DNA from: Hyphomicrobiales bacterium
GTDB taxonomy: Bacteria > Pseudomonadota > Alphaproteobacteria > Rhizobiales > Aestuariivirgaceae
DNA: 64,000 nt
Assembly: GCA_025359045.1 (NCBI GenBank)
Contig: JANYHN010000021.1
Span: 62,001 to 126,000, forward strand
Direction of reading: 5' to 3'
In this document: positions 10,363-59,402 of the stretch, one piece after another
Layout: every line of letters begins with the position of its first letter
How positions within the stretch are numbered: the first letter of the stretch is position 1
Position numbers and translations under genes: made by a program
Notes under the pieces: generated by a model
The model's database searches: none
Told to the model about the DNA's origin: nothing
Seen by the model: the letters and a program-made list of their open reading frames with translations, nothing else

Positions 10363-10433
10363 CGTAAACACCTTAGAATTTTGACCAAGTGATCACAAGT
10401 CTATGGCTAAGACAAGGTTTAGCAGTGTCGCTG

Positions 10434-12089
10434 CTAGCTTAAATCGGCCAAATCACCCAATGCAGTGATTAAAGGCCCCAGATGTTTCTCATAAGGCTTC
10501 CAGCGTTTCATCGAACTCTTATAAATGGGCTGGCGCACCTGCCATCGGCTGATGGTGGTGACTGTGCGTTCATTTTTGGTATAATTCAAGCAGGCATCAT
10601 CCCATTCCAACCCGCAATGCGCGATTAGTTTGCGTGACTGTTCTTCTTGATTTTCAACCAAAGTTTCATATTGGTTATCAAAAATCCGTCCCGGCAGAAC
10701 TTTGTTCCAGTGGGCCATGAGCCGATTATAGGCGCGGTAATAGCGACCAAGCTTTTCGAGATCAGCATTGTAAGCATGGGCGTCGCTGAACGCGTTCATA
10801 TAGCAGGAGAGGCAGTTATCAATCGCATCACGCTTGCAATGAATGATAGTGGCGTTGGGAAAGAGTAGAGCGATAAGGCCAACATATTCGAAATTATGTG
10901 GCATTTTGTCGGTGATGCGTTGGGCTTCATGCGAGTAATGTGCAAGGTGCTTCAGGTATCGCTGCGCCGAAAGGCGCGACTCGTCCGTTGTCAACTTTAA
11001 AAGCTTATCACTAAAACGCGCGCCGGATTTATGATTGTCACCAAAGCCCCGCGCGATGGTGGAAATTTCTGATAGTTCGCCCGCCCCCATTACCAGAGGA
11101 TGACTCGAAATAATCTGTTCGGTCAACGTGGTGCCAGAGCGCGGCATGCCCACAATGAATACGGGCTTTTTCGAAGCCTCGCCAAAATTCTTGCGGGTTG
11201 AAAGAAACAACTGGTTGAAAAGTTCGCAAAATTCATCAACGCGCTTTTCATAACGATTGATATCGTAGTGCGCAGCTGATACCGCCTTGGCCTTCTGAAA
11301 AAAACCCATGGCATCATCATTGATCTTTGCGTCATTGCTCATCTTTGCAGCCGCGTAATAAAGTAATGCCCTTTCTTCCTCGCTATATTCAGGATTTTCG
11401 ATCTCTGTTTTCACTGCCATGAGTTCTGGCGATGTGGCAGAAAACTTCCGCGTTGAAGATAGGCTTTGATATGAATGCGGCACTGCAATGCGTTTGGCAA
11501 TTGTTGCCTTGATGAAAGGTTCAGCCTCATCCATTCGGCCAAGATTAATCAAAGCATCTACATAGGCGACGCGGCCATTCGGGTTGACGTCATCCATGCC
11601 CAATGACTTGACCGCAAATTGAAGCGCCTCTTTGCCGCGCCCCATGCGATTATAACAAGTGGCAACCAGCGCGATGGTCTCTATCTGACTAGGTTTCAGA
11701 TCGAGCGCACGCCGCAAATGCGGAACGGCATGATGATAATCGTGCAGAGAGATTAGAGCGCTCGCAATATTGTGGCGGATCAAGGGGTCTTTGGGCAGTC
11801 CCTTGACTGCTTTTTCAAAAAACTCCACTGCCACGGCAAAGTCTTCAGCTTCTATGGCAATAGTTCCCATCAGGTTATTGGCCTCGGGCATATCAGGCGC
11901 CTGAGCCAAAACCGTTTGATAATAGCGCTCGGCTTCCAAAAATTTGCCCGAACGCTGCAAGTCCATGCCCACTTGCAAAAGTTGCAATAGCCGGTTGCGA
12001 TCCAATGGTTTTGTTTTGGCCAAACGCAAGGGGGCAGTAAAGTTACTGAAGGCTGGGCCGATTGGTGTTGGAACAGGAAATTTGGGCAT
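10434..12089 (-). CDS. TPR-repeat sulfotransferase
   Basis: A 551-residue two-part protein. Residues about 30-200 contain tetratricopeptide repeats (for example GKFLEAERYYQTVLAQAPD and the following LMGTIAIEAEDFAVAVEFF). From about residue 310 it is a PAPS-dependent sulfotransferase with the 5'-phosphosulfate loop VGMPRSGTTL (313-322) and a 3'-phosphate-binding region IIHCKRDAIDNCLS. Such TPR-sulfotransferases are common in Alphaproteobacteria; their acceptors (glycans, lipids or proteins) are mostly unknown. It has no signal peptide. It lies 71 bases upstream of uraH on the same strand, so weak co-transcription with purine genes is possible but not suggested by function. Confidence 0.85.
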   Translation of the reverse strand: MPKFPVPTPIGPAFSNFTAPLRLAKTKPLDRNRLLQLLQVGMDLQRSGKFLEAERYYQTVLAQAPDMPEANNLMGTIAIEAEDFAVAVEFFEKAVKGLPKDPLIRHNIASALISLHDYHHAVPHLRRALDLKPSQIETIALVATCYNRMGRGKEALQFAVKSLGMDDVNPNGRVAYVDALINLGRMDEAEPFIKATIAKRIAVPHSYQSLSSTRKFSATSPELMAVKTEIENPEYSEEERALLYYAAAKMSNDAKINDDAMGFFQKAKAVSAAHYDINRYEKRVDEFCELFNQLFLSTRKNFGEASKKPVFIVGMPRSGTTLTEQIISSHPLVMGAGELSEISTIARGFGDNHKSGARFSDKLLKLTTDESRLSAQRYLKHLAHYSHEAQRITDKMPHNFEYVGLIALLFPNATIIHCKRDAIDNCLSCYMNAFSDAHAYNADLEKLGRYYRAYNRLMAHWNKVLPGRIFDNQYETLVENQEEQSRKLIAHCGLEWDDACLNYTKNERTVTTISRWQVRQPIYKSSMKRWKPYEKHLGPLITALGDLADLS

Positions 12090-12100
12090 GATCCAGTTAT

Positions 12101-12129
12101 AACAAAACCCCGGCTTTGTGAACCGGGGT
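12101..12129 (-). terminator. Rho-independent terminator after the outer-membrane protein gene
   Basis: On the minus strand the sequence forms a stem ACCCCGG/CCGGGGT (12123-12129 with 12107-12113) with a 9-base loop, followed by TTTTGTT. It lies just downstream of the outer-membrane protein stop codon at 12159 and immediately before the sulfotransferase start, so it separates the two transcripts. Confidence 0.75.
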
Positions 12130-12158
12130 CTCGAATTCTTGTTTTCTAAAAACCCGAA

Positions 12159-12818
12159 CTAGAAATTAAATGTCAAACCAATCTGCACATTATGTGAGGC
12201 AAATGTATTTCCGGTAACATCGGGGAACCCAGTGAACTTTTGAGTAAAATTCGGAATATCTTTGAAGCGGTAACCAATATCCAGATCAATTTTGTCGCTC
12301 AAGGCATATTTTGCACCAACGCCCAGTTGGAACGCAAGCTGTACCGGCGTATCAGAATTAACCCCACCGTTGGCGGTAAAGTCTTGGTTTGGCAATCCCA
12401 CCCCCAAACCACCACCGATATATGGTGTAAATGCACTCTCCGACTTAAAATCATACCAAACGTTGCCGAGTATATAAGTAGCGCTCAATTGGCCTTGAGC
12501 TGGCGAAAACGGACTACCGCTGCTCGAAATTGAATTGACTGACCAACTCGCGTGAGACAACTCTAGTTCTGCACGGAAATTGTCGTTCAGATGTGCGCCA
12601 ATAGCGCCACCAAAAATATAGCCCAAATTCGTTCTAACGCTTAGAGAAGTGCCGGAAGAAAACCCATTCACGTCATTTAAAAAGCTCGCGCCACCGAATA
12701 CGCTGACGTAGATTGGTGATCTTTCTGGAGCAATTGGATCAGCTGCACTGGCCGAACTATAGGTGAATGCGACTGCTGCTAAAGCCACACTTGTTAATAA
12801 GATAAATTTTGATTTCAT
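12159..12818 (-). CDS. Outer-membrane beta-barrel protein (porin/OmpA-like barrel)
   Basis: A 219-residue exported protein. Residues 1-26 form a signal peptide ending in SSASA before AD, and the mature part has alternating amphipathic strands, many aromatic girdle residues, the glycine-rich YIGGGLGVGLP, and ends in the terminal aromatic residue LTFNF typical of outer-membrane barrels. The segment GVGAKYALSDKIDLDIGYRF is typical of the alphaproteobacterial OMP_b-brl family (Omp25/Omp31 relatives). The ATG at 12818 (MKSKF) is preferred over the longer frame because the signal peptide then has a normal n-region. No ligand or function can be read from the sequence. Confidence 0.8.
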   Translation of the reverse strand: MKSKFILLTSVALAAVAFTYSSASAADPIAPERSPIYVSVFGGASFLNDVNGFSSGTSLSVRTNLGYIFGGAIGAHLNDNFRAELELSHASWSVNSISSSGSPFSPAQGQLSATYILGNVWYDFKSESAFTPYIGGGLGVGLPNQDFTANGGVNSDTPVQLAFQLGVGAKYALSDKIDLDIGYRFKDIPNFTQKFTGFPDVTGNTFASHNVQIGLTFNF

Positions 12819-13052
12819 CGTGATGGTGCCCAATTCATTTAAAGTGACTACCGCTATACTCTAAATAAAGCCTTAAAGTGGCCACTGTCAATGATTTTTC
12901 TCAATTATATTCACAGTTTAACCGCAACCAAAAGATGTGTCAAAACTGTGGCGCACCCAAAGCGATTGATCGCTCCACATTTTTCCAGTGCTTGATTTTG
13001 AAGCCATTCCGGTTCAAAGGAGGCGCCAATTGGTAATTTGACAAGGAATCTA

Positions 13053-13274
13053 ATGGCTAAAGAAGAATTGCTGGAGTTTGAGGGCACGGTTGCCGAACTT
13101 CTGCCGAATGCAACATTTCGTGTGAAGCTTGACCATAACGCTCACGAAATTATTGCTCACACCTCTGGAAAAATGCGTAAAAACCGCATCCGCGTTCTGG
13201 CGGGTGACCGGGTTATGGTTGAAATGACGCCCTATGATCTGACCAAGGGCCGCATCAATTATCGGTTTAAATAA
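13053..13274 (+). CDS. infA: Translation initiation factor IF-1
   Basis: A 73-residue OB-fold protein beginning [20 protein letters not shown] and containing [19 protein letters not shown] and the closing [11 protein letters not shown], the invariant IF-1 pattern. The ATG at 13053 is preceded by AAGGA; a frame starting 15 bases earlier lacks family support. Its TAA stop overlaps the maf ATG by one base. The infA-maf-yacG order is typical of Rhizobiales. The 234 bases upstream, divergent from the outer-membrane protein gene, must hold both promoters. Confidence 0.97.
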
Positions 13275-13912
13275 TGGCTGTCGCGGGTGCCAAGCTTGTT
13301 CTGGCCAGCGCTTCACCGCGTCGCTTGAGCTTGCTTGACCGCATCGGCCTCACACCTGATTTGCTCAATCCATCAGATGTCGATGAAACGCCTTTAAAGC
13401 GCGAAACACCGAGACGCTTGTCAATCCGCCTCGCGGATGCCAAGGCCGATAAGGCCAGAGACATGCCGATGGTGAAGGCCTTGGGGGATAGTGTTTTTGT
13501 TCTGGCTGCTGATACAGTTGTGGGTCTTGGTCGGCGCATTTTGCCTAAGGCTGAAACTTACCAGGAAGCCAAAGACTGTTTAAATTTGCTCTCTGGCCGT
13601 TCGCATTGGGTCTACTCTTCAGTCACGGTCATTGCCCCCGGCGGTAAAAAATCTTCGCGCTGCGTGGAAACCAAAATCCGCTTTAAACGCTTTTCGCGCG
13701 ACGATATTGAAAGCTATTTGAAATCTGAAGAATGGCGCGGCAAGGCCGGTGGTTATGCTATTCAGGGCCGTGCCGAGGCGTTCGTGCGTTATATGGCTGG
13801 CTCGCATTCAGCCGTGATTGGTCTTCCACTTTACGAAACCGTGTTGCTTTTGGAAGGTGCTGGTTTTCCTGTGCAACATAAGTGGATGACCCAGCCCATT
13901 AGTGATTTGTGA
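13274..13912 (+). CDS. maf: Maf-like nucleoside triphosphate pyrophosphatase
   Basis: A 212-residue Maf/YceF/YhdE family protein that hydrolyses non-canonical or modified nucleoside triphosphates, mainly m7GTP or dTTP/UTP depending on subgroup. It starts LVLASASPRRLSLLDRIG, the hallmark Maf motif, and has LAADTVVGLGRRIL with the catalytic aspartate and GGYAIQGRAEAFVRYMAGS. Coupled to infA (TAATG) and to yacG (TGATG). Confidence 0.93.
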   Translation: MAVAGAKLVLASASPRRLSLLDRIGLTPDLLNPSDVDETPLKRETPRRLSIRLADAKADKARDMPMVKALGDSVFVLAADTVVGLGRRILPKAETYQEAKDCLNLLSGRSHWVYSSVTVIAPGGKKSSRCVETKIRFKRFSRDDIESYLKSEEWRGKAGGYAIQGRAEAFVRYMAGSHSAVIGLPLYETVLLLEGAGFPVQHKWMTQPISDL

Positions 13913-14100
13913 TGGCTGAAATTATACCTCTAAGGCCGCGCAAGCCTTGCCCGATCTGCAAAAAGCCTTCCTCACAAAAATTCCATCCATTCTGTTCTAA
14001 CCGCTGCGCCAATGAAGATTTAAATTCTTGGTTGGGTGGCAAATACTCCATCCCCGTCGTTGAAGATGAAGACGAAGACGGCCAAGACGGGTTGGCTTAA
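13912..14100 (+). CDS. yacG: DNA gyrase inhibitor YacG (zinc-binding)
   Basis: A 62-residue zinc-ribbon protein with CPICKKP and FCSNRCANEDLNSWL, giving the four conserved cysteines and the downstream DL--WL of YacG, followed by an acidic tail rich in Asp/Glu. YacG binds the GyrB C-terminal region and inhibits gyrase in E. coli. I use ATG 13912, which overlaps the maf stop, rather than the GTG three bases earlier. Confidence 0.9.
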   Translation: MAEIIPLRPRKPCPICKKPSSQKFHPFCSNRCANEDLNSWLGGKYSIPVVEDEDEDGQDGLA

Positions 14101-14244
14101 TTCAATTTCCACAGCACTGAGAAGTCGGTCGACTTTTATCATGTACTGCTCTAAGAGCTTGGCCTTAGCGGATGGGATAAAGGCCCACGCAAGAGCTAAA
14201 TTGCATCCGAAAATAACGATATGCTTCAGGGAGGAAGCTTCATA

Positions 14245-16167
14245 ATGTCTAGTGCATCAACAATGCCTTCAAAAGGCATGACCAAAGACGAGAAATTCGT
14301 CATATTGGCTTCATCTACGGGAACCGTGTTCGAGTGGTATGATTTCTATCTCTACGCAACGCTCACCCCATTTTTCGCAGCTTTCTTTTTTCCGCCAGAT
14401 AACCCCACTTGGGCTTTGCTCGGCGCCCTTGGTGCCTATGCGGCAGGCTTTCTTGTACGCCCGTTTGGTGCCTTGTTTTTTGGCCGATTAGGCGATCTTG
14501 TTGGCCGCAAATACACATTCCTCGTCACCATTATGGTGATGGGCATTTCAACATTCTTGGTGGGTTGCTTGCCGTCTTACGCAAGCATCGGCGGCTTGGC
14601 TCCGGTTCTGTTGCTGATCATTCGCTTGACACAAGGCTTGGCGTTGGGTGGCGAATATGGTGGTGCTGCAACTTATGTGGCAGAGCATGCACAAAATGGC
14701 CGCCGAGGTTATGCGACCAGCTGGATTCAAACCACGGCAACCATCGGCTTTTTTATGTCGCTGATCGTGATCGGTGGTTTGCGCTGGTATTCTGATCCAG
14801 CGTGGTTCAAGGACGGCACAGGTGGTATCATCGCGGGCTGGCGCATTCCGTTCCTCGCTTCAATCATTCTTTTGGCTTTCTCGGTTTGGATTCGTTTGAA
14901 GTTAAACGAGTCACCTGTGTTCCAAAAGATGAAAGATGAGGGCCGTGGCTCCAAAACCCCGATCCGTGACTCGTTCTTCAAATACCCCAACAACAAATAC
15001 GCATTGCTCGCTTTGCTGGGTGCCACTATGGGCCAAGGCGTTGTGTGGTATACCGCACAATTCTATGCGCTGTTCTTTATCAATGGCCCCCTGAAAGCAG
15101 ATTGGTGGGTTGGTTACGTCGTCGTAGGCGTTGCTGTTCTCTTGGCCACACCGCTGTTTGTTTTCTTCGGTAAGCTCTCTGATAAAATTGGCCGTTTGAA
15201 AATCATTTTGGCGGGCTGTGCGTTAGCTGCAATTTGCTATTTGCCGACCACAGGCATATCACTGTTCCACATGTTGGCGCGGGCCGTGAATCCAGAACTG
15301 GCAGCCTTCAATGACACAAGTCCGGCAAAGTTAATTGTGACGGCTGATCCAGCGCAATGCCATTTCACCATCTTCCCAATCAAGGGTTGGACGACGGAAG
15401 GTGACTGCGACAGGGGCAAAGCCATCCTGACATCAAATGGCATTTCATTCACGTCTGTGGATGGTGCTGCAGGTTCCAAGGTTAGTTTTCAGGCAGGTGA
15501 CGCCAAGGTGGAAGGCACATCGCCTTATGCTTGGCAGAAGGCATTGGCGGATGCGGGCTATCCGCATTTCAAATTGGCTGAAGCTGATTTGACGCTGACC
15601 AAGGAGCAATCTGATGCGTTGGTAAAAGCACAAGCTGATAAAAAAACTGCCACCGAAGTTAAAGATGCTGCTGCAACCAAGACAGCAAATACTGCCATTG
15701 AGGCCGTTGTTAATGGCTTGCGTAAGGCGGCAGATCCGGCTGCGAAGCCAGTTGCTGCAGTCAATGCCATTGCCGACGCTGTTGTCGCCGCAGATGGAAC
15801 GGCTACGGTGCATGTGGGAGAAATCAAAACCACTACGGCCAAACCCTTGAGCTTTGCTCAATATGTGCAATCGATCCTGATTGTGTTTGTAATGATGGTT
15901 TTCACCACCATGGTTTATGGCCCTATTGCTGCATTTTTGGTGGAAATGTTCCCCTCTAATGTGCGCTATACCTCGATGTCGTTGCCCTATCATATCGGTA
16001 ATGGCTGGTTTGGCGGCATGCTGCCATTGTTCGCCACGGCTTATGTGGCCTATACAGGCAACATCTATGCAGGCTTATGGTATCCCGTGGTGTTCGCCGC
16101 TATTACGGCGGTGGTGGGTTTCTTGTTCCTGAAAGAAACCAAAGATGTGGATATCGCCAAAACTTAA
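14245..16167 (+). CDS. MHS-family major facilitator with a large periplasmic insertion
   Basis: A 640-residue transporter of the metabolite:H+ symporter (MHS) branch of the major facilitator superfamily. The start is fixed by AGGGAGGA 10 bases upstream. Motifs include FEWYDFYLY in helix 1, FFGRLGDLVGRKYTF between helices 2 and 3, and LALGGEYGGAATYVAEHA in helix 4. Twelve helices can be placed, but about 190 hydrophilic Ala/Thr/Lys-rich residues (about 345-530) interrupt helices 9 and 10, a loop expected to be periplasmic. The insert has two cysteines in QCHFTIFPIKGWTTEGDC that could form a disulfide. MHS proteins carry dicarboxylates, proline, shikimate or similar; substrate unknown here. It stands alone between yacG and a strong terminator. 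Confidence 0.85.
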   Translation: MSSASTMPSKGMTKDEKFVILASSTGTVFEWYDFYLYATLTPFFAAFFFPPDNPTWALLGALGAYAAGFLVRPFGALFFGRLGDLVGRKYTFLVTIMVMGISTFLVGCLPSYASIGGLAPVLLLIIRLTQGLALGGEYGGAATYVAEHAQNGRRGYATSWIQTTATIGFFMSLIVIGGLRWYSDPAWFKDGTGGIIAGWRIPFLASIILLAFSVWIRLKLNESPVFQKMKDEGRGSKTPIRDSFFKYPNNKYALLALLGATMGQGVVWYTAQFYALFFINGPLKADWWVGYVVVGVAVLLATPLFVFFGKLSDKIGRLKIILAGCALAAICYLPTTGISLFHMLARAVNPELAAFNDTSPAKLIVTADPAQCHFTIFPIKGWTTEGDCDRGKAILTSNGISFTSVDGAAGSKVSFQAGDAKVEGTSPYAWQKALADAGYPHFKLAEADLTLTKEQSDALVKAQADKKTATEVKDAAATKTANTAIEAVVNGLRKAADPAAKPVAAVNAIADAVVAADGTATVHVGEIKTTTAKPLSFAQYVQSILIVFVMMVFTTMVYGPIAAFLVEMFPSNVRYTSMSLPYHIGNGWFGGMLPLFATAYVAYTGNIYAGLWYPVVFAAITAVVGFLFLKETKDVDIAKT

Positions 16168-16181
16168 TTAAAACACCAATC

Positions 16182-16212
16182 GAAACCCCGCTTTTTAGCG
16201 GGGTTTCTTTTT
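16182..16212 (+). terminator. Strong rho-independent terminator after the MHS transporter
   Basis: GAAACCCCGCT and AGCGGGGTTTC form an 11-base-pair stem with a TTTT loop, followed directly by a T-rich tract (TTTTTG). It is 14 bases after the transporter stop codon. Confidence 0.92.
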
Positions 16213-16272
16213 GTATGAAACCCAGTTGCAACGGCACAACTGTTCACCTATACAGCCCGTCACCAAACGACA

Positions 16273-16290
16273 AATTCCTCGTGAGGAATT
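16273..16290. repeat. Perfect inverted repeat just upstream of tRNA-Phe
   Basis: AATTCCTC, two bases, then GAGGAATT: an 18-base palindrome ending 10 bases before the tRNA. It could be a transcriptional or processing signal, or a protein-binding site; nothing in the sequence decides. Confidence 0.5.
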
Positions 16291-16299
16291 CGCCTGGAT

Positions 16300-16375
16300 G
16301 CCCGAGTAGCTCAGTTGGTAGAGCAGCGGATTGAAAATCCGCGTGTCACTGGTTCGATTCCGGTCTCGGGCACCA
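16300..16375 (+). tRNA. tRNA-Phe (GAA)
   Basis: A 76-base cloverleaf with encoded CCA. Acceptor GCCCGAG pairs with CTCGGGC; the D arm contains AGCTCAGTTGGTAGAGC; the anticodon stem GCGGA/TCCGC encloses TTGAAAA with anticodon GAA; the T arm contains GGTTCGATTCC. A TTTTTATTATT tract follows. No duplicated 3' end or integrase is visible nearby, so it is not in use as an integration site here. Confidence 0.97.
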
Positions 16376-16407
16376 TTTTTATTATTGGCTGTTGAATTCG
16401 CCTGCTT

Positions 16408-17601
16408 TTAATCGCTGCCAAAAAGGTCCCGCGTAAAAACTTTCTTTTTCACATCGAGAAGCTCGTCAGTCATACGATTGGTCACAATCACATCGGCTAT
16501 CGCTTTAAATGCGTTGAAGTCTTTGATCACCGGCGAGTTATAGAATTTGTCTTCATTCACATTCGGTTCGTAAACCACAACCTCAACACCTTTTGCCTTA
16601 ATGCGCTTCATGATGCCTTGGATGCTGGATGACCTAAAATTATCCGAACCTTTTTCCATTGCCAATCGGTAAATACCAACTGTGTTCGGATTGGTCTTTA
16701 GAATATGCTCAGCGATGAAATCTTTGCGCGTGGTGTTAGACCGGACAATCGCCTGAATTAAATTTTGTGGCACTTCGCTATAATTAGCAAGCAGCTGCTT
16801 GGTGTCTTTCGGCAAGCAATAGCCGCCATAGCCAAAGGACGGATTATTATAATGCTGACCAATGCGAGGGTCGTTGCACACACCGTCAATAATACTGCGT
16901 GTGTCTAAGCTGCGACTGAGAGCAAAACTATCAAGCTCGTTAAAAAATGCTACGCGCATCGCCAAATAGGTGTTGGAAAAGAGCTTGGTTGCTTCAGCTT
17001 CAGTTGGCCCCATGAACAAGATTTCAATATCTTGTTTATTGGCCGCATCTTGAAGAAGGCGGGCGAATTCGACTTCAGTTCCCGTCGCGCCGCCAATCAC
17101 AATACGGCTTGGATTCAGATTGTCGTGTAAGGCGCGGCCTTCGCGTAGAAACTCAGGAACAAAAAGGATGTTGGGGAAATTCAATTGCTTTTTTAAGTGT
17201 TCGGTAAAGCCTACCGGAACGGTCGAGCGAATAACGAGAGTTACATTGGGATTGACCGATATTGCAAGTTTCGCGACGGATACCACGGATGTCGTGTCGA
17301 AAAAATTTGTTTGCGGATCATAATTTGTCGGCGTCGCGATGATGATGAATTCGGCGTCAGAAAATGCGGCGGTCAAATCGGTCGTTGCCGAAAGGTCGTG
17401 ATCCTCATTGAGGAAGCGCTCAAGGTCGCCATCGGAAATGGGCGAACGACCATTGTTTACGAGTTCAATGCGGTCTTGCGAAATATCTGCAACTGTTACG
17501 GAATTAAACTTTGAGAGCAGTGCGGCATTCGACAAGCCGACATAGCCACAACCTGCAACAGCTACCTTATAACTCTTTTGCTGAGATATTCTTTGAAGCA
17601 T
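16408..17601 (-). CDS. ugd: UDP-glucose 6-dehydrogenase
   Basis: A 397-residue NAD-dependent dehydrogenase that oxidises UDP-glucose to UDP-glucuronate. The N-terminal Rossmann motif is VAVAGCGYVGLS, followed by IIIATPTNYD, RSTVPVGFTEHL and PEFLREGRALHDNLNPSR; the catalytic cysteine lies in YGGYCLPKDTKQL. The length is that of the short E. coli-type enzyme. The last third, with KGVEVVVYEPNV, is the UDP-binding domain. No good ribosome-binding site precedes the ATG at 17601. It is monocistronic. Its product could serve polysaccharide synthesis or glucuronosyl-diacylglycerol made by the glycosyltransferase about 4 kb to the right (inference). Confidence 0.92.
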   Translation of the reverse strand: MLQRISQQKSYKVAVAGCGYVGLSNAALLSKFNSVTVADISQDRIELVNNGRSPISDGDLERFLNEDHDLSATTDLTAAFSDAEFIIIATPTNYDPQTNFFDTTSVVSVAKLAISVNPNVTLVIRSTVPVGFTEHLKKQLNFPNILFVPEFLREGRALHDNLNPSRIVIGGATGTEVEFARLLQDAANKQDIEILFMGPTEAEATKLFSNTYLAMRVAFFNELDSFALSRSLDTRSIIDGVCNDPRIGQHYNNPSFGYGGYCLPKDTKQLLANYSEVPQNLIQAIVRSNTTRKDFIAEHILKTNPNTVGIYRLAMEKGSDNFRSSSIQGIMKRIKAKGVEVVVYEPNVNEDKFYNSPVIKDFNAFKAIADVIVTNRMTDELLDVKKKVFTRDLFGSD

Positions 17602-51107: not shown

Positions 51108-52162
51108 TGACTAAGAAAATTCGTTTGTTTGTGCTGGGCACAGGCGGCATGGCAGCAGCTCATTGCAAGGCTTTCAATGCAGACCCACGTGTTGAGATTG
51201 TGGGCTGTGCGGATATTGAACTCGCCCGCGCCGAAAAATTCTCAAAAGAAAATCATGCTGGCAAAGCCTTTGGCTCGCTCGATGAGGCGATCAAATGGGG
51301 CGAGTTTGATGCGGTAACCAACGTCACACCTGACAGCATCCACCATCCAACCACGATGAAGCTTCTGGCCGCCAAGAAACACATTCTATGCGAAAAACCA
51401 CTGGCAGAAAATTTTGCACTTGCCGATGAAATGGCCACAGCAGCTGAGAAGTTAGCCGTGATCAATATGGTCAACCTCACTTATCGCGGTGTTGCTGGGC
51501 TGCAAGCTGCCAAGCGCATTATTGCGTCCGGCGAAATCGGCGAAGTGCGCCATGTGGAATCGTCTTATCGTCAAAGCTGGCTTGTCGGCAATCATTGGGG
51601 TGCTTGGGATAAGCTGCCCATGTGGCTGTGGCGCCTGTCTGAAAAGCATGGCTCCAAAGGCGTGCTCGGCGATGTTGGCATCCATATTCTGGATTTTACA
51701 ACCTATGCCATCGGCATGATGCCGACATCAATTCAGGCGCGACTCAAAACTTTCCACAAAGCGCCAGATGATAAAATTGGCGAATACACTTTGGATGCTA
51801 ATGACTCAGCCTACATGTCAGTTGAGTTTGAAAATGGCGCATTGGGTATAATTCATGCCAGCCGATTTATGACCGGCTATGGTAACACGCTGAAGCTTCA
51901 CGTATTTGGCACCAAGGGCGGGCTTGAAATCGAGAACGACCATGACCGCACGACGCTGCGCGTGTGTTCAGGCGAAGATGTCCACACCCAAGCTTGGCGC
52001 GATATTGTGCGCACTGAAGCGGAGCCTTCAAACTATCACAAGTTTATCTCGGCGATTGTAGAAGGCAAAAACGGCGACCCAAGTTTCCGCCGCGCTGCTG
52101 ATCTGCAGAAGATTTTGGATGCTTGTTATTCCAGCGAAGCGTCGCATGCAATGAAGCTTTAA
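51107..52162 (+). CDS. thuB: ThuB-like Gfo/Idh/MocA oxidoreductase
   Basis: A 351-residue NAD(P)-dependent dehydrogenase: N-terminal Rossmann motif FVLGTGGMAAAHCKAF, the family motif ILCEKPLAENF with catalytic lysine, and GVLGDVGIHILDFTTYAIG at the substrate side. With ThuA it oxidises position 3 of a glucose moiety in disaccharides. Starts in the thuA stop (TAATG). Last gene of the operon; a GC-rich hairpin follows. Confidence 0.88.
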   Translation: MTKKIRLFVLGTGGMAAAHCKAFNADPRVEIVGCADIELARAEKFSKENHAGKAFGSLDEAIKWGEFDAVTNVTPDSIHHPTTMKLLAAKKHILCEKPLAENFALADEMATAAEKLAVINMVNLTYRGVAGLQAAKRIIASGEIGEVRHVESSYRQSWLVGNHWGAWDKLPMWLWRLSEKHGSKGVLGDVGIHILDFTTYAIGMMPTSIQARLKTFHKAPDDKIGEYTLDANDSAYMSVEFENGALGIIHASRFMTGYGNTLKLHVFGTKGGLEIENDHDRTTLRVCSGEDVHTQAWRDIVRTEAEPSNYHKFISAIVEGKNGDPSFRRAADLQKILDACYSSEASHAMKL

Positions 52163-52192
52163 CGTCCCCTCCCGCTTTGCGGGAGGGGACGT
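52162..52192. terminator. Bidirectional hairpin between thuB and the synthetase gene
   Basis: ACGTCCCCTCCCGC and GCGGGAGGGGACGT form a perfect 14-base-pair stem with a TTT loop. It fills the 31-base gap between convergent genes and has no long T tract on either side, but is stable enough to end both transcripts. Confidence 0.8.
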
Positions 52193-52193
52193 A

Positions 52194-55100
52194 TCAAGCC
52201 GCAATAGCTTCGTTCGCCACAGCAATCGCTTTCAAAACTTCAACAGGTTGTGCGGGCGAACCGACCCAGGATGAATCTGAGGGAAGCTCTTCGCCCTTCA
52301 TGACCAACGTAAGCGGCCCAATGATTGCGCCATCGCCCAGATGCGTATCATAGAGAACAGTCGAACCAGCACCAATCGTCACATCTTGCCCAACCCAAAT
52401 CCGACCCACCTTCATCAGACGGTCTTCATAGAGATGGGTTTGCAGACAAGCACCTGCATTGATCGAAGCGTGATCTCCGATTGTTACACAATCAAACTCT
52501 GTGATGTCGGTTGCATCCATATATACACCTAGGCCAATTTTTACACCAAACAGACGCAGTGCCATCGGCAAAAATGGCGTTCCGCGCGCTTGTTCGAGAA
52601 ACGCTTTGCCGGCCATGCCCCAATACATAACAGCGATAGCCTCCGTGCGCAGCGCCCACCACGACCACATCGGTTTTACGATTGGTTTATAAACGCCCAT
52701 CGAAATCCATTTGCAGGCAACCGCAATGAGCAATTGCATAAAGTCAACCCAGACGACCACCAACACACATAAGGCCGCGAGCAGCAGCCAGTTTTCATCC
52801 TCAACAGCTTCGTTTAGCGCCAACATGCCGTAAGTTGCGAGTGAGATGAAAATTGCGGTTGGCAGGCTAATATTGAAAGCTTCAAAGACAGCGCGCCACA
52901 ACTTCATCCGGATACTTGGTTCAAACGTCGAAGCAGAACTTGAATCAAATTTCTGGCGCACCGGTAGTTTAATCGCGGGTGAACCAAACCAGATTTCCGA
53001 TTGCCCAACAGTGCCACCTTCCGGAGGACGCGATTTGACGCCGATCAAGGCACCCGAAGCAACAGTATAATTCATCGGCACCACGGCTTCGTTGCCAATA
53101 AAAACTTTGGACCCTGTGCTGATTGTGCCCAGTGTCATCCAATTGCGGCGCATATGATCATCACCCAACTGAACGTCATCCGCAATGAAATTGCCTTCTC
53201 CAATATCGACGAGGTCATAACGACCCGAAAGATTTGTTGAAATTTCCGATCCGCGCCCGATGCGTGCACCCATGAGGCGGTACCAGCCACGCATATATAT
53301 GGTAGCGAAAATGGATGACAAAGTGTCGAGCATTACTTCGGTGCCGAGCGACACGATCCATTTGCGCACATAAATGCCGCTGAAAATCGAATAGCGACCG
53401 GGTTTGAGCTTTGGCAATATCGTCCAACGCAAAGCCACCATGAAGAGCGCAGTCAACAAAACCAACATTGCAGCTGCAGAAAGTGCAAGCAGTGGCATAT
53501 ACCAAAGGTAATTGATGCCCCCCAACAATGGATTCACATAATTGTCCAGCCATTCCATAAAGCGGAACGCCGGAACCACAGGCAAAAGACCAATGGGTGG
53601 CAGAATAATCAAACAAATAGCATAGATGCAGATGTGCAAATTGCGCAAAGCGCTGGATGCTGTAGCTGGTTCGGGAATTTCGGTAGCATTGATATCCCTT
53701 ACTTTTCGCGCGGGCGAGCCTGTCCAAAGTTCATAAGCTGGAACAGTGTGATCAGCCTGAATAGAAGTGAGATCATCCAACTCTGCGCCGTCACCAATGA
53801 TGACATCGTTTTCAATCACGCACGACGAGCCGATAACCACATCATCACCAATGGTAACTGGGCCGATGATAAACAGATCGCGCTCAACACGCGTATTCGC
53901 GATAATAACTTTGCCGCCGAGCGAAGCGTGATCACCAATGCTCACAAGATCAATTGCACCAGCATCAATTTCACTGATCAACGCTTCATTGCCAATTTGC
54001 GCACCAAACAAACGCAAATAACTGCGGATGATGGGCGTGCCTTGCATCCACTTTACATGGGCCAGGGAAATCAAACGCTGCACCAACCAAACGCGGAAAT
54101 AATAGCTGCCCCAAAGTGGATAGATGCCCGGCTTCGTGCGCCCAATGAGCAGCCACTTTGCAATGGGCGGAAGAACAAAATTGAAAATACTGACGGCCAT
54201 AAAAGCAAAGAAGATTTGTGCCACGTCAAAGAGGAATGAACTATCCTCTGCTGAAATCAACGTGTACGAAATAAAGATCGTCAACCAAGGTGCGGCCTGC
54301 AATGTTAAAATAAATGGCAGGGTAAGGCCTTGCGCGATGCCACATAAAATTTGATTGCGCTTGCTGATGCGCCTTGGAACAATGCGTTCAGGCTCAATTG
54401 TATTGCGTTCGACATAAGCGCCACGCGCTTCCAGAAGTTTTGACATGGCTCTAATGTTGCGTGCTTCATAAACATCTTGCAGGGTGATGGCAGCGCATCC
54501 CCTAGTCTTGCGAACAATCGAAATAAATTGCGCAGCCAGCAAAGAGTGCCCGCCAATGTCAGTGAAGAAATCACCCTCAAGCGGAATAGCATTGCCCGGA
54601 AAAACCTTGCGCGCCGCATGCAGCAATACTCCTTCAATCGGCGTTGCAGCTTCTTCCTGCCCAACCAAACCATCATCGGCTTTGGCAAGCGGTAAAAACT
54701 TCAAGGCTTTGCGATCAACTTTGCCGGACACCAAGCGCGGCACGATGTCAATCACTTCAAACCGCGCTGGAACCATGTAGGGTGGCAAGCGCTTGCGCAA
54801 GTCTGCGCGAAGGGCAGGGACATCAACATTTGCATTCTTGCGCGGCACTAGGAACGCAACCAATTGGTCCATGCCGCTATCATGGCGCAGCACAACCGCC
54901 GCATGATCAACGCCTTCAAAATCTCCCACGGCGGTTTCAATCTCACCGAGTTCGACCCGAAAGCCACGAATTTTCACCTGATCATCAATACGGCCATGAA
55001 ACAGAATATCGCCGTCTTCATCAATGCTCACTGCATCTCCGGTGCGATACAAAATAGGATCAAGTTCAGTGGCACCAAAAGGATTGGCGATGAACTTCTG

Positions 55101-56261
55101 TGCAGTAAGATCTGGACGTTCCACATAGCCTGGGGCAACGCCCGGCCCGCCAATAAGCAATTCACCCTTGGTGTTGGGTAAAACCAAATTCATGCTCTCG
55201 TCAACTACAAAGGCTGAGTGGTTTGGAATGGGCTTGCCGATGGTCACATCAACACCGGGCTCCAACTCAGCCATGGTGGCAACCACGGTTGTTTCGGTTG
55301 GGCCGTAGCTGTTGAACAATCGTCGCCCACCCGTTGCAAAACGCGCCACCAATGATGGCGGGCAGGCTTCGCCACCCACAATAACTGTGCGCAGTGTGGG
55401 AACATCCCCCATCAACAAGGCAAGCAAAGTGGGTACTGTGTCAATCGCCGTAACACCCGCTTTGCGCATCAAACCGGGCAGGACTTCTGTATCGGCCAAT
55501 GTCTCGCCATTGACGATCCAAAGCGTTGCCCCAACCATCAACGGAATCCAAACTTCCTCCATCGAGAGATCAAAGGCCACCGAGCAACCTTGAAACATCA
55601 CGTCGCTGGATGAGATGCCAAACATTGAATTTGAAGCACGCAGATAGTGGCAGATGTTGCGGTTGGTAATCGCAATGCCCTTGGGCACACCAGTCGAGCC
55701 CGAAGTATAAATCATATACGCTATACTGCTCGACGAATGACCACGCTTGCGTGGGTCCGCGAGTTTTGCTTTGCCGGGCTTGGCAATTGAACCCGTATTA
55801 GGCCAAACTGGAAATGCAATTCCGTCCACTCGTTTAGCAAATTCAACTGTCGTCAAAAGCCCTTTGGCTTTCGCATCACCAAGACAAACGGCAATCCGGT
55901 CTTTTGGTGTTTCAGAATCAAAGGGCAGCCAAGCAGCGCCCGTCTTGGTAATGGCAATCTGCGCTATCAAAAGATCAGCGCCCCGCGGCAGGTAAAGGCC
56001 AACCACATCACCTGGCCCAACACCTTGTTCCTGCAATCCGCGCGCAATCGCGTTTGATTGCAAATCCACTTCGGAGTAAGTTAGCTTTCGATCACCTTCG
56101 ATCATCGCAATCTTTTTTGGATTCTGAGCGGCAGTTTCAGCGAACATTTCCGCCATGGTCTCTTCACGCAGAAATTCAGGTTCAATGACTCCTCTTAAGG
56201 GATTTCCAGCGATGGGTGTTTGATGGTTAAAACCAGCGCTGTTCTGCGGGACGACGTTCAT
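52194..56261 (-). CDS. Pls/PosA-type non-ribosomal peptide synthetase (A-T-membrane-LbH)
   Basis: A 1355-residue single-module synthetase. Adenylation domain, residues about 30-525: A3 YTSGSTGVPKG (185-195), A5 NSYGPTETT, A7 YRTGD, A8 QVKIRGFRVELGEIE, A10 lysine 514. Carrier domain, 540-612: DIGGHSLLAAQ with Ser573 as phosphopantetheine site. No condensation or thioesterase domain follows; instead six membrane helices (about 637-668, 675-705, 872-900, 918-945, 1124-1150, 1157-1187) alternate with three left-handed beta-helix domains (750-850, 997-1100, 1236-1340) rich in IG-hexapeptides. This is the architecture of epsilon-poly-L-lysine synthetase. Pocket residues D231 L232 E235 D274 I294 G296 S318 V326 V327 K514 suggest a basic amino acid. 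ATG 56261 has AGGA 7 bases upstream; the GTG at 56300 does not. PPTase and M1 peptidase precede it. Confidence 0.88.
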   Translation of the reverse strand: MNVVPQNSAGFNHQTPIAGNPLRGVIEPEFLREETMAEMFAETAAQNPKKIAMIEGDRKLTYSEVDLQSNAIARGLQEQGVGPGDVVGLYLPRGADLLIAQIAITKTGAAWLPFDSETPKDRIAVCLGDAKAKGLLTTVEFAKRVDGIAFPVWPNTGSIAKPGKAKLADPRKRGHSSSSIAYMIYTSGSTGVPKGIAITNRNICHYLRASNSMFGISSSDVMFQGCSVAFDLSMEEVWIPLMVGATLWIVNGETLADTEVLPGLMRKAGVTAIDTVPTLLALLMGDVPTLRTVIVGGEACPPSLVARFATGGRRLFNSYGPTETTVVATMAELEPGVDVTIGKPIPNHSAFVVDESMNLVLPNTKGELLIGGPGVAPGYVERPDLTAQKFIANPFGATELDPILYRTGDAVSIDEDGDILFHGRIDDQVKIRGFRVELGEIETAVGDFEGVDHAAVVLRHDSGMDQLVAFLVPRKNANVDVPALRADLRKRLPPYMVPARFEVIDIVPRLVSGKVDRKALKFLPLAKADDGLVGQEEAATPIEGVLLHAARKVFPGNAIPLEGDFFTDIGGHSLLAAQFISIVRKTRGCAAITLQDVYEARNIRAMSKLLEARGAYVERNTIEPERIVPRRISKRNQILCGIAQGLTLPFILTLQAAPWLTIFISYTLISAEDSSFLFDVAQIFFAFMAVSIFNFVLPPIAKWLLIGRTKPGIYPLWGSYYFRVWLVQRLISLAHVKWMQGTPIIRSYLRLFGAQIGNEALISEIDAGAIDLVSIGDHASLGGKVIIANTRVERDLFIIGPVTIGDDVVIGSSCVIENDVIIGDGAELDDLTSIQADHTVPAYELWTGSPARKVRDINATEIPEPATASSALRNLHICIYAICLIILPPIGLLPVVPAFRFMEWLDNYVNPLLGGINYLWYMPLLALSAAAMLVLLTALFMVALRWTILPKLKPGRYSIFSGIYVRKWIVSLGTEVMLDTLSSIFATIYMRGWYRLMGARIGRGSEISTNLSGRYDLVDIGEGNFIADDVQLGDDHMRRNWMTLGTISTGSKVFIGNEAVVPMNYTVASGALIGVKSRPPEGGTVGQSEIWFGSPAIKLPVRQKFDSSSASTFEPSIRMKLWRAVFEAFNISLPTAIFISLATYGMLALNEAVEDENWLLLAALCVLVVVWVDFMQLLIAVACKWISMGVYKPIVKPMWSWWALRTEAIAVMYWGMAGKAFLEQARGTPFLPMALRLFGVKIGLGVYMDATDITEFDCVTIGDHASINAGACLQTHLYEDRLMKVGRIWVGQDVTIGAGSTVLYDTHLGDGAIIGPLTLVMKGEELPSDSSWVGSPAQPVEVLKAIAVANEAIAA

Positions 56262-56352
56262 GTGATTTCCTGTTGTTCGCTGCGGATATGGAATTCCCAC
56301 ATGAGTCTGTCAACAATGTGAGGCAGCAGTGCCTTGAAGATATTAAATTTTC

Positions 56353-57021
56353 TTAAGATTCTGGCCTGGTTTTCAGAGCTTCAATTTGCCAGCCAGCCCC
56401 AATTCGATAGGGCTTTGTGAGGCTTTTTAAAATCATTCCATGACTGTGGGGCAGGGCGATACCACATAGGAATTCGATACCTGGCCACTTCAGGGCCCTT
56501 ATTTGAAACAATCCCACAATCACATCGGGAACAGGAGCACCCGCCAAGAGACTAGGGCCGATTCTATAAATACCTTCTCGAAATTCAGAAACCGCCAAAT
56601 GTCGCGGATCAATCATAACGTCGCCACTGCATTTCAGTGCAGCCTCCTTGACGACCCAAAGTGCTATCCCCGCATCTCGGTTCAGGCGTACGAGCGATTG
56701 AATGGCACACGCATCCTCAGACGTTGAAATACTGTCCAAAAAATCAGGGTCAGCTGCAATCTCAGGCCAAACTTCAACATCAATGCCTAATTCTGTTTCG
56801 TCAGATACAGCAATCAACCCAAAAATTTGGGGCGCGTTTCGAACACGGCTGAAATTGCAATGCCATGTGCGCCCATCGGCACATTCTACCTTCTGCTTGC
56901 CGTTGGTTTGGCGCAAGAGCCTTACAGTTTCAGCATCGCTTTGACCCGCAGCTTGTAATAATTCGCGCAGAATCTCAGTGCGGCGCATGGCTGTATCAGG
57001 TTGAACAATGCCGATATGCAT
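56353..57021 (-). CDS. 4'-phosphopantetheinyl transferase (Sfp-like)
   Basis: A 222-residue Sfp/AcpT-type transferase that activates carrier domains with coenzyme A's phosphopantetheine arm. Key motifs are LGIDVEVW (magnesium-binding Asp and Glu) and WVVKEAALKCSG. An N-terminal CNFSRVRN resembles the substrate-proximal NxSH region but lacks the usual histidine at that position. It lies 5 bases after the M1 peptidase and 91 bases before the synthetase, so its probable client is Ser573 of that protein. Confidence 0.87.
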   Translation of the reverse strand: MHIGIVQPDTAMRRTEILRELLQAAGQSDAETVRLLRQTNGKQKVECADGRTWHCNFSRVRNAPQIFGLIAVSDETELGIDVEVWPEIAADPDFLDSISTSEDACAIQSLVRLNRDAGIALWVVKEAALKCSGDVMIDPRHLAVSEFREGIYRIGPSLLAGAPVPDVIVGLFQIRALKWPGIEFLCGIALPHSHGMILKSLTKPYRIGAGWQIEALKTRPES

Positions 57022-57026
57022 TGCTT

Positions 57027-59402
57027 TTACTTCACGCCGTTAGCGGCGCGCGTGAGGAGAGAGGTGTTCAATTGTATCGTCTCCAATGTCTGCTGTAACT
57101 GCACTGCCCCGCCCCTCAGTGTTCCCAAGAGTGGCGTAATCGTGGAATGAACGCGCATTTCTAATTCTTTTGTCGCAAACACATCAGCGAGCTGAATGAG
57201 CACCACATCAAGGTCGCCATCTAATCGTTTGAGCAGCCGGTCGCTATCTTGCGCCACCACGTCCCATAGCTGATGTTGGAATTTTTTATAATCAGCACGC
57301 GCATAAAGAAGATCGGGAACTTCTTGGTTGCGCAATTCATCTGATAGCAACAAATCCGCGATGATTTTAGATGATTGATCAGCATGACTGGCTGCAACAC
57401 TGTCGAGCCAAACTTCGCGGTCCGCAAGGCTGAGTCTATTTCCCAGTTGGGCAAGTGCGAGTGCCAGAAAATCTTCGCCATATAAAATTGCAGCAGCCAC
57501 GAGAGCCCCCCTCGCAACGTCATAAGGTGCAATATTGTTTTCATGGAGAGAAATGCGCTTCCGTTGGGCCAAGCGCATTCCTAATTCTGCAAACTGCAAC
57601 TGCTTTGCAGCATCAGCACCAGATTTGGCAAATGCTAAAACAAGATCCTCGCGTTGCAACTGTCTTTGCCACGAAGCGACAGTGTTTCCCTTCAGAGGCG
57701 ATTGCAGGTTAATTTTTTTAAGGCGCTTGGCATAGACAGTGTTGAGCGTTTCTTCGACTGAGGTTGCAATTGAACCGTCTATATCAGCAAAATAATTGAG
57801 GCGTTCGAGTGGAAATCCTGCCACCTGCCAATCTGGGTGTTCTGCAATTTTCTCAACATTGCGCAAATAAAAATCAAAGTCGACCCGACCCGCGTAGAAA
57901 GCCACGTCTAGATTGATTGCAGCTGCAAGCGCGCGCGGTCGTTCCCAAGTTTTGAAATTGACAAGATTAGCCTTGCCCTGGCGTAGAGATAAATCAGATA
58001 GTTCATATCGGGGTTTGTGATCAAATCTCGTTTGGTCAGAGATAGGAACGCCTGTTTCAGAAATTCCTTTGCGCACCAGACGGGCCGCAGCAGTGCCAGC
58101 GTTGCGTTCCAGAACGCTAAGAAATTCTTCAGTTGTCATCGTCCCATGCGCCCGTTCTTTCAGAAATGATCGCACAATGCTTTTGAAGTTTTCTGCCCCC
58201 ATCTCATTTTCGGCCATGGCCAGAATTGCAGCACCTTTTTGATAAGTAATTTCATCAAACGCACCAGAAATGCTGTCGACGCTATTAACAGGCTCATGAA
58301 TGCGGCGCACTGATTTAATTTGGTCTAATAACATGGCCTCATGTGCCCCCAACATAACATCTGTTTCAAATTGCCAACTTGGTTCAATCACATGTGCAAA
58401 TTTTGATTCCATGAACGAAGCAAAAGACTCATTGAGCCACAGATCATCCCACCATTTTGGCGAAACCAAATTACCAAACCAATGATGCGCAATCTCATGC
58501 GCATGAATTGAAAGAAATTCGCGCCGATCTTCGATGCCGGCGTCTTCAAGCATCAAAACATAATTTTCGTCGTAGGTAATTGCGCCAGCATTTTCCATGC
58601 CGCCCGCTCCAAAATCGGGTACTGCGACGACATCGAGCTTATCAAATGGATATGCAATGCCGAAATATTCCTCCTCTGCCAATACCAACGGCGCTGTATA
58701 TCGTAATGCAATTTCCAGCTGCTCGCCTTTACCCCTCATTGCAATGCCGCGCACAGGTATTGGTGTATTGCGCAGTTTGCTTGCACGAACAGGAACACTT
58801 TCAACAACATCGAATTGTCCAACCGCAAAGACTATGAGATATGTCGGCAGAGGTTTTGTTGTTGCAAACCGATGTGTCGTGAGCCCAGCCTTATCGCTGA
58901 TTGCATTCAGTTCAATTGTATTGCTGATAGCTTGAAATTGACTGGGAGCAATCAATTGAAAATCGAACAGAGCCTTAAAGCCGGGTTCGTCAAAACATGG
59001 AAATGCCCGCCTGGCAGCGATGGCTTCAAACTGTGTAAAAACAGCTGGCTGGCCTTCATCAACAACTTTGTAAATGCCTTCAAGCCCAGAAGCGAGAGGT
59101 GCGCGATAAGAAAACGACAATGTGACGAGCCCCGGGTCGAGCATGTCTGACACATCAACACTGATCGTACCGTCAGTATCCAAACTACGGACTTGCGCGA
59201 TATTTTGCGTAGCTTTTTTAATAATTTGGACACGCTCAAAAATAAGATTTTGCGCATGCAGGATCACGCTGCGCGTGGCCTTGCCAAGCAAGACGTCGAT
59301 TTCAACATTCCCAAAAAAATATTCGGCCGCAGGGTCGATACGCAAGGATAGCCGGTAATGTTTTGGCCTTACCGTTTCGTCAAGGCGTATCAATTTCGCC
59401 AC
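57027..59402 (-). CDS. M1-family zinc metallo-aminopeptidase
   Basis: A 791-residue gluzincin aminopeptidase. The exopeptidase motif GAGGMENAG lies at 265-273, the zinc site HEIAHHWFGN at 302-306 (His302, His306), and the third ligand is Glu325 in LWLNES, giving the HEXXH-18-E pattern. N-terminal beta domain and C-terminal helical ERAP1-like region are present, so it is complete. No signal peptide, hence cytosolic. The start is GTG 59402 without a strong ribosome-binding site. It begins the operon with the transferase and synthetase. It may be general, or may trim or degrade the polymer for self-protection (inference). Confidence 0.9.
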   Translation of the reverse strand: MAKLIRLDETVRPKHYRLSLRIDPAAEYFFGNVEIDVLLGKATRSVILHAQNLIFERVQIIKKATQNIAQVRSLDTDGTISVDVSDMLDPGLVTLSFSYRAPLASGLEGIYKVVDEGQPAVFTQFEAIAARRAFPCFDEPGFKALFDFQLIAPSQFQAISNTIELNAISDKAGLTTHRFATTKPLPTYLIVFAVGQFDVVESVPVRASKLRNTPIPVRGIAMRGKGEQLEIALRYTAPLVLAEEEYFGIAYPFDKLDVVAVPDFGAGGMENAGAITYDENYVLMLEDAGIEDRREFLSIHAHEIAHHWFGNLVSPKWWDDLWLNESFASFMESKFAHVIEPSWQFETDVMLGAHEAMLLDQIKSVRRIHEPVNSVDSISGAFDEITYQKGAAILAMAENEMGAENFKSIVRSFLKERAHGTMTTEEFLSVLERNAGTAAARLVRKGISETGVPISDQTRFDHKPRYELSDLSLRQGKANLVNFKTWERPRALAAAINLDVAFYAGRVDFDFYLRNVEKIAEHPDWQVAGFPLERLNYFADIDGSIATSVEETLNTVYAKRLKKINLQSPLKGNTVASWQRQLQREDLVLAFAKSGADAAKQLQFAELGMRLAQRKRISLHENNIAPYDVARGALVAAAILYGEDFLALALAQLGNRLSLADREVWLDSVAASHADQSSKIIADLLLSDELRNQEVPDLLYARADYKKFQHQLWDVVAQDSDRLLKRLDGDLDVVLIQLADVFATKELEMRVHSTITPLLGTLRGGAVQLQQTLETIQLNTSLLTRAANGVK

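What the first reader, a model, noticed from the sequence alone, without database searches (positions are those of the whole stretch)
52194..59402. Three-gene operon for a probable poly(amino acid): M1 peptidase, PPTase and Pls/PosA synthetase
The synthetase has one adenylation and one carrier domain but, in place of condensation and release domains, six membrane helices alternating with three left-handed beta-helix domains, the layout known from epsilon-poly-L-lysine synthetase of Streptomyces. A dedicated phosphopantetheinyl transferase and a zinc aminopeptidase are co-transcribed. This suggests synthesis (and possibly trimming or immunity) of a homopolymer in an alphaproteobacterium; I know of no characterised product from such an operon in this class.
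Basis: partly seen in the sequence, partly recalled or inferred. Interest (0 to 1): 0.88.

Follow-up and report, generated by a model that had tools for sequence, protein, structure and literature searches.

The report
Predicted poly(amino acid) synthetase operon
This is a three-gene operon that probably makes a short cationic polymer of one amino acid, with its own activating enzyme and a peptidase that may trim the polymer; the machinery is of a known kind, but the amino acid used by this branch of alphaproteobacteria is unknown.

Summary
On the minus strand lie an M1 aminopeptidase (57027-59402), a small phosphopantetheinyl transferase (PPTase, 56353-57021) and an adenylation-carrier-TIGR02353 synthetase (52194-56300; likely start 56261). 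TIGR02353 scores 611 bits against a cut-off of 423; a model shows six long helices in three pairs with three beta-rich domains. It belongs to the Pls/PosA family.

Its pocket code, DLEDIGSVV, matches neither Lys, Orn nor Dab/Dap enzymes. It is kept in 33 of 36 readable members of one alphaproteobacterial clade next to PosA. Patel and Gulick (2023) already listed nearly this code as unassigned. Genome content argues against beta-lysine and diaminobutyrate; ornithine, arginine or lysine remain.

The neighbours differ in strength. This PPTase occurs in exactly the 10 of 37 same-genus genomes that hold the synthetase, always adjacent. The M1 gene is adjacent in only 3 of 9 same-genus carriers where it could be seen: a lineage-specific addition, analogous to PldII beside Streptomyces pls. 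New member of a known kind.

The parts
57027..59402 (-). M1-family zinc aminopeptidase gene, 791 aa, no evident signal peptide; first gene of the operon
   Evidence: closest solved structures ERAP2/ERAP1; GGMEN, HEXXH-X18-E, Tyr; catalytic motifs kept in the copies of G020, G027 and G036
56353..57021 (-). small Sfp-like 4'-phosphopantetheinyl transferase, 222 aa; second gene
   Evidence: only PF01648 gene found in the genome besides one with a 146-aa frame; co-inherited with the synthetase
52194..56300 (-). Pls/PosA-family synthetase, 1368 aa as the ORF; likely start ATG at 56261 (1355 aa)
   Evidence: start: AGGAAA before the ATG and start of relative L025
54699..56165 (-). adenylation domain (residues about 46-534)
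   Evidence: TIGR01733 and AMP-binding; best PDB match 8g95
55281..55571 (-). stretch with the substrate pocket residues, code D L E D I G S V V (D244 to V340)
   Evidence: alignment to 8g95 and MAFFT alignment; D244 and E248 invariant in 44 synthetases
54411..54623 (-). carrier domain with phosphopantetheine Ser586 in IGGHSL
   Evidence: PP-binding, motif, Ser586 invariant in 44
52251..54335 (-). TIGR02353 polymerisation part: three helix pairs plus three beta-helix domains
52425..52442 (-). invariant Q1287-x-H1289-x-x-E1292, candidate catalytic centre in the third beta-helix domain
   Evidence: invariant in 44 aligned Pls/PosA-type synthetases; catalytic role is inference
52162..52192 (.). 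perfect 14-bp hairpin directly after the synthetase stop, between convergent genes; no T-run, so only terminator-like
   Evidence: read by eye from the sequence printed; not listed by the scan

Best explanation
A biosynthetic operon for a cationic homopoly(amino acid). The PPTase puts phosphopantetheine on Ser586 of the synthetase (inferred from family). The adenylation domain activates one diamino or guanidino amino acid and loads it on the carrier domain (inferred from intact motifs and the Asp/Glu pocket). The membrane-embedded beta-helix part, probably around H1289 and E1292, joins monomers one by one through side-chain amines and releases or passes the chain at the membrane (inferred from Pls and PosA). 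The monomer is most likely ornithine or another cell-made basic amino acid of similar length. The M1 enzyme, present only in one branch, removes residues from the polymer by way of the free alpha-amine next to each amide carbonyl: trimming, recycling or self-protection, as proposed for PldII beside Streptomyces pls (inferred).
For: TIGR02353 over cut-off; A and carrier domains, no condensation or thioesterase domain; fold model; residues shared by all 44 synthetases compared, PosA of Acinetobacter (L082) among them: D244, E248, Ser586, Q1287, H1289, E1292, K1297, Y1317, M1334-K1335-G1336. Tree puts the DLED clade (34 rows, support 100) next to PosA, with a second DMEHNGTV-code protein (L085) just outside, so an ornithine-type ancestor is the simplest reading (long branches). 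PPTase in exactly the 10 of 37 same-genus genomes that hold a synthetase, always adjacent. M1 relatives of 41% identity or more occur in 4 of 100 genomes, all 4 synthetase carriers, 3 adjacent. PldII precedent: translationally coupled to pls, repression lowers tolerance to the polymer (PMC9223678, passages read); peptidase gene in the pls operon of Corynebacterium too (PMC8117764, passages read). Beta-lysine: KamA family not found in G000, G015, G020, G022, G024. Diaminobutyrate: Dat over cut-off in 0 of 10 carriers, EctB in 0 of 10.
Against: No product, activity or expression data. The code is not that of any characterised synthetase, so the monomer is a guess. The M1 gene is missing beside the synthetase in 6 of 9 testable same-genus carriers; in G027 it lies far away beside genes that look by eye like pyrB and pyrC, and G235 has a distant M1 relative (40% over query residues 6-456) but no TIGR02353 match, at 86% completeness. 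The window's M1 has no signal peptide, whereas PldII is described as outside the membrane. A review passage reports that inactivating Pld and PldII did not change epsilon-PL production or length (PMC8506220, passages read), against the later CRISPRi result. The M1 position aligned to Asp of the TDFE stretch in ERAP2 is Gln here (TQFE; that this position shapes the S1 pocket is recalled), so there is no sign of a basic-residue preference.
Confidence: 0.68

Rival explanations
1. The synthetase and PPTase form the real unit; the M1 gene is a general aminopeptidase that happens to be co-transcribed in one branch and has no role in the polymer.
For: Adjacent in only 3 of 9 testable same-genus carriers; the G027 copy is unlinked; a distant relative occurs without a synthetase in G235.
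Against: A second, longer M1 gene is present in the genome as well (G000 C53, 27% identity, open frame 882 aa), so this is an extra copy; all 4 of 100 genomes with this M1 hold the synthetase; two different surroundings (window/G020 versus G036) keep the M1-PPTase-synthetase order.
Confidence: 0.35
2. The product is delta-poly-L-ornithine itself; the DLED pocket is a variant solution for ornithine.
For: Nearest characterised relative is PosA (41% identity); Leu at position 2 is close in size to Met of PosA; PosA-type codes flank the clade; E248 kept.
Against: Met to Leu, His to Asp, Asn to Ile, Thr to Ser and Ser to Val changes relative to PosA are all kept in 33 of 36 readable clade members, which suggests a different ligand; a second acid in the pocket could fit arginine or another doubly cationic side chain.
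Confidence: 0.35
3. The product is a polymer of a monomer not among the known homopoly(amino acid)s, such as an arginine-type unit, selected by the Glu plus Asp pocket.
For: Code not shared with any characterised enzyme named in PMC10522769, where nearly the same code is listed as unassigned (section read); an A domain of a Bdellovibrionales homologue showed modest activity with arginine (same paper, section read).
Against: Arginine has no nucleophilic side-chain amine for an isopeptide chain; no monomer-making gene in the operon.
Confidence: 0.3
4. The product is poly-beta-lysine or poly-diaminobutyrate.
For: The code resembles, from memory only, the beta-lysine code DTEDVGTMVK and the start of the diaminobutyrate code DLEHNTTVSK.
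Against: No lysine 2,3-aminomutase family member found in the window's own genome (93% complete) nor in 4 of the 9 other carriers searched, though 5 of 10 have one; no Dat or EctB over cut-off in any of 10 carriers; position 2 is Leu, not Phe as stated for the Dab/Dap enzymes (PMC10522769).
Confidence: 0.06

Closest known systems
PosA, delta-poly-L-ornithine synthetase of Acinetobacter baumannii (PMC10522769; A domain 8g95-8g98, the link to these entries being recalled)
   Same: Whole domain order, TIGR02353 part, Asp and Glu at pocket positions 1 and 3; nearest characterised relative in the tree
   Different: 41% identity; code DLEDIGSVV instead of DMEHNGTVS; [quoted passage not shown]
Pls, epsilon-poly-L-lysine synthetase of Streptomyces albulus, with PldII (PMC8117764, PMC9223678, passages read)
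   Same: Same synthetase kind; an aminopeptidase gene coupled to the synthetase gene
   Different: PldII has a 1404-bp gene and is described as a two-zinc enzyme outside the membrane, its gene following pls; here a 791-aa M1 enzyme, its gene first in the operon; no PPTase is mentioned in the passages I read; pocket differs
Uncharacterised DLEDIGTV(T/V/I)K group of Patel and Gulick (Archaea, Rhizobia, Methylobacterium)
   Same: Pocket code equal but for Ser instead of Thr at position 7; the window's clade includes Rhizobium sp. CCGE531 with DLEDIGTVV (L081)
   Different: A term search of that paper's main text found no mention of PPTase or peptidase neighbours; its supplements were not seen

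Membership tests
Pls/PosA cationic homopoly(amino acid) synthetases | TIGR02353 terminal domain over the curated cut-off | tested here: met
   611 bits against 423
Pls/PosA cationic homopoly(amino acid) synthetases | one A and one carrier domain, no condensation or thioesterase domain | tested here: met
   Pfam list of 6 families
Pls/PosA cationic homopoly(amino acid) synthetases | six membrane helices in three pairs with three beta-helix domains | tested here: met
   third beta domain modelled with low confidence; first one matched to hexapeptide transferases
Pls/PosA cationic homopoly(amino acid) synthetases | Asp and Glu at code positions 1 and 3 | tested here: met
   D244, E248
Pls/PosA cationic homopoly(amino acid) synthetases | makes an isopeptide homopolymer | not testable with these tools
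   needs an assay
PosA proper (ornithine) | pocket D M E H N G T V S K | tested here: not met
   DLEDIGSVV
Pls proper (lysine) | Ala at code position 2 | tested here: not met
   Leu245; Ala rule from PMC10522769
Dab/Dap polymer synthetases | Phe at code position 2 | tested here: not met
   Leu245; Phe rule from PMC10522769
Sfp-type PPTases | PF01648 over cut-off, GIDxE and KEAxxK motifs (motifs recalled) | tested here: met
   margin is small, 27.9 against 25 bits
M1 aminopeptidases | GxMEN and HEXXH-X18-E with catalytic Tyr (motifs recalled) | tested here: met
PldII (epsilon-PL-degrading enzyme) | homology to PldII | not tested
   PldII sequence not fetched; gene length (1404 bp) and two zinc ions given in PMC9223678 suggest another family

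The most novel reading that the evidence does not exclude
The DLED clade, spread over Azospirillum, Rhizobium, Bosea-like, Chelatococcus and Beijerinckiaceae genomes, makes a homopolymer of a monomer not yet known from any poly(amino acid), and in one branch an M1 aminopeptidase has been recruited independently of PldII as its depolymerase or immunity enzyme.
Probability: 0.27. Interest if true: 0.65.

Novelty: new member of a known kind. Interest (0 to 1): 0.42.

Why it matters
Only a handful of natural homopoly(amino acid)s are known, and the Acinetobacter polymer was described as the first from bacteria outside the Actinomycetes (PMC10522769, abstract). A pocket kept almost unchanged in synthetases only about 50% identical, across several alphaproteobacterial families, points to one specific polymer, undescribed as far as my searches reach, with a wide spread that includes plant-associated genera. 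The two-gene PPTase-synthetase cassette should make expression and assay easy, so the monomer question can be settled directly. The residues common to all 44 compared synthetases name a testable active site for the polymerising part; [quoted passage not shown]

Tried and rejected
Beta-lysine and diaminobutyrate as monomers were considered because of remembered code resemblances and judged unlikely on genome content. Chance clustering of the PPTase was rejected by the 10 of 10 against 0 of 27 pattern, with the caveat that these genomes are related. Neighbourhood clustering over the fetched loci gave no monomer-making gene for the DLED clade; the gene calls there were longest-ORF calls, often on the wrong strand in high-GC loci, so that absence is weak. 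The pocket comparison of the M1 enzyme was not informative. The PDB has no sequence match for the PPTase at E 0.01; for the terminal part the matches listed are hexapeptide transferases, gamma-carbonic anhydrases and other beta-helix proteins. The structural comparison covers mainly the first beta-helix, so other folds are not excluded. Paper searches listed no characterised alphaproteobacterial product; they cover open PMC papers only, and three listings were cut (30 of 226, 20 of 130, 10 of 22). Yamanaka 2010 (PMC2935060) was not held.
Full report
What is there. The window is G000:C23:62001-126000 of a 3.18 Mb genome in 76 contigs. Its closest named relative for this gene is a metagenome-assembled 'Hyphomicrobiales bacterium' (L003, 96% identity; its contig length equals that of G020:C24, so I count the two as one genome; likewise L025 and G015:C285). 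On the minus strand three genes follow each other: M1 aminopeptidase, PPTase, synthetase. The gap between the first two is 5 bases. The synthetase ORF begins with GTG at 56300, but the ATG at 56261 has AGGAAA ending 4 bases before it and agrees with the start of L025. A perfect 14-bp hairpin follows the synthetase stop (by eye), without a T-run. Promoter-like matches in the region were fewer than in shuffles (4 against a mean of 9.8), so nothing is claimed about promoters. Co-transcription is inferred from spacing and strand only.

Residues. In an alignment of 44 synthetases (5 partial or broken rows of 49 left out) the invariant residues include D244 and E248 of the pocket, the carrier serine 586, and in the last beta-helix Q1287, H1289, E1292, K1297, Y1317 and M1334-K1335-G1336. 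H1289 and E1292 are my candidates for the catalytic centre; this is inference.

The pocket. Read against PosA, the code is D L E D I G S V V, with the usual Lys as tenth letter assumed. Of 49 aligned rows, 39 fall in the same clade as the window in the first tree; 36 of these could be read and 33 have exactly this code; the others are DLESVGSVV (L019), DLEDLGTVV (L024) and DLEDIGTVV (L081, Rhizobium). In the quick maximum-likelihood tree of 44 rows the 34 DLED rows are one clade with support 100; PosA (L082) is its neighbour and L085 (DMEHNGTVT, Sphingomonas) lies just outside. The tool warned of long branches, L082 and L085 among them, so the order of these two is not firm. Patel and Gulick list 'D L E D I G T V T/V/I K' from Archaea, Rhizobia and Methylobacterium among unassigned codes (section 10). 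The code group is therefore published; I found no product for it.

Which monomer. Beta-lysine would need a lysine 2,3-aminomutase; no member of that family was found in 5 of 10 carriers, the window's genome and the 100%-complete G020 among them, while the other 5 have one over the cut-off. Diaminobutyrate would need Dat or EctB; 0 of 10 carriers exceed either cut-off, although paralogues at about 230-260 bits exist in most (the Dat model rings weakly in 14 of 14 control genomes). What remains are amino acids that cells generally make: ornithine, arginine, lysine. The flanking PosA-type codes and the Met to Leu change at the chain-length position favour an ornithine-sized unit; the additional Asp at position 4 is unexplained and could mean arginine or a unit not yet known from such polymers.

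The PPTase. The window's genome has two PF01648 genes, one with a 146-aa frame (AcpS-like by size) and this one. In all 37 genomes of the genus, the small low-scoring type is found in 10, exactly the 10 with a synthetase (8 over the TIGR02353 cut-off plus G022 and G033, where the gene is split over contigs), each time on the synthetase's contig and adjacent to it; in 0 of the 27 others (the G027 copy scores 23.6 bits, just under the cut-off of 25). Four genomes hold additional, higher-scoring PF01648 genes (G012, G022, G032, G036; G032 is not a carrier), and G005 shows none at all. Outside the genus a PPTase adjoins the synthetase in Rhizobium sp. CCGE531, Sphingomonas, two Rhodospirillales MAGs, G077, G049 and G053, and none is annotated next to it in two Azospirillum plasmid records or the Acinetobacter record (PLSDB gene tables are incomplete).

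The M1 gene. It is not the general proteobacterial PepN: NCBIfam's best is pepN_strep_liv at 226 bits, far below its cut-off of 591, and the window's genome has a separate longer M1 gene. Relatives of 41% identity or more occur in 4 of 100 genomes: G000, G020, G036 and G027, all synthetase carriers. In the first three it lies directly upstream of the PPTase; in G027 it lies far away beside genes that look like pyrB and pyrC. Of the 9 same-genus carriers with readable sequence upstream of the PPTase, 3 have it and 6 do not; G015's contig ends inside the PPTase, and no close copy was found elsewhere in G015. A sample of 297 genomes of the order at E 1e-90 found it in G000, G027, G036 and, more distantly, G235, which has no TIGR02353 match (G020 was not drawn). 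In the synthetase tree the three carriers with adjacent M1 form one branch with G015 (support 94), so one acquisition is enough. G036's copy has what looks like a signal peptide; the window's has none (by eye). The parallel is PldII, coupled to pls in Streptomyces; its repression lowered tolerance to the polymer and shifted its length (PMC9223678, passages), though a review passage says that earlier inactivation of Pld and PldII changed neither production nor length (PMC8506220, passages). A peptidase gene also forms an operon with pls in Corynebacterium (PMC8117764, passages). In an alpha-carboxyl to side-chain-amine polymer each amide carbonyl has a free alpha-amine beside it, so an aminopeptidase is a chemically sensible depolymerase; this is reasoning, not data.

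Verdict. The PPTase link is strong, the M1 link is real but confined to one branch, and the family, its layout and nearly this code group were already known. What is open and interesting is the monomer of the DLED clade.

Noticed in passing
L065 (G070:C96:22000-37259), 4693-15212: A split, multi-carrier version of the system: a 1116-aa protein with four tandem carrier stretches and the highest TIGR02353 score of the survey (664-666 bits) but no A domain; next to it a gene with partial condensation, A and carrier domains, a TauD-type dioxygenase, a PPTase, SbnB (over cut-off) and an SbnA-like protein (below cut-off), which suggests a diaminopropionate supply. It may be more unusual than the window's operon.
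   Followed up: partly
L071 (G061:C279), synthetase 8352-12359: Pocket code DGESVSVVN, one letter from the published epsilon-poly-beta-lysine code DGESISVVNK (PMC10522769), in an unnamed relative of the same order.
   Followed up: no
L077 (G088:C7), synthetase 8836-13056: Code DAESVGTVV with Ala at position 2, as described for lysine-type synthetases.
   Followed up: no
L066, L068, L069 (G077, G049, G053): DFEC-type codes (Phe at position 2, as in Dab/Dap enzymes) with a PPTase adjoining or overlapping the synthetase end (L068's PPTase also by Pfam).
   Followed up: no
L085 (Sphingomonas parapaucimobilis plasmid), 7800-16585: PosA-like code DMEHNGTVT with PPTase, GNAT acetyltransferase and S8 peptidase genes downstream.
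   Followed up: no
L009, L014, L015, L018, L022, L029, L032: In Beijerinckiaceae-type loci the synthetase often stands near a gene that looks by eye like chorismate synthase aroC, on the same strand, with no PPTase or M1 found in the fetched flanks: perhaps a stable, old position.
   Followed up: no
L067 (G036:C143), 12170-14731: The M1 copy carries an N-terminal stretch that looks like a signal peptide, unlike the window's copy, so the site of action may differ between species.
   Followed up: no
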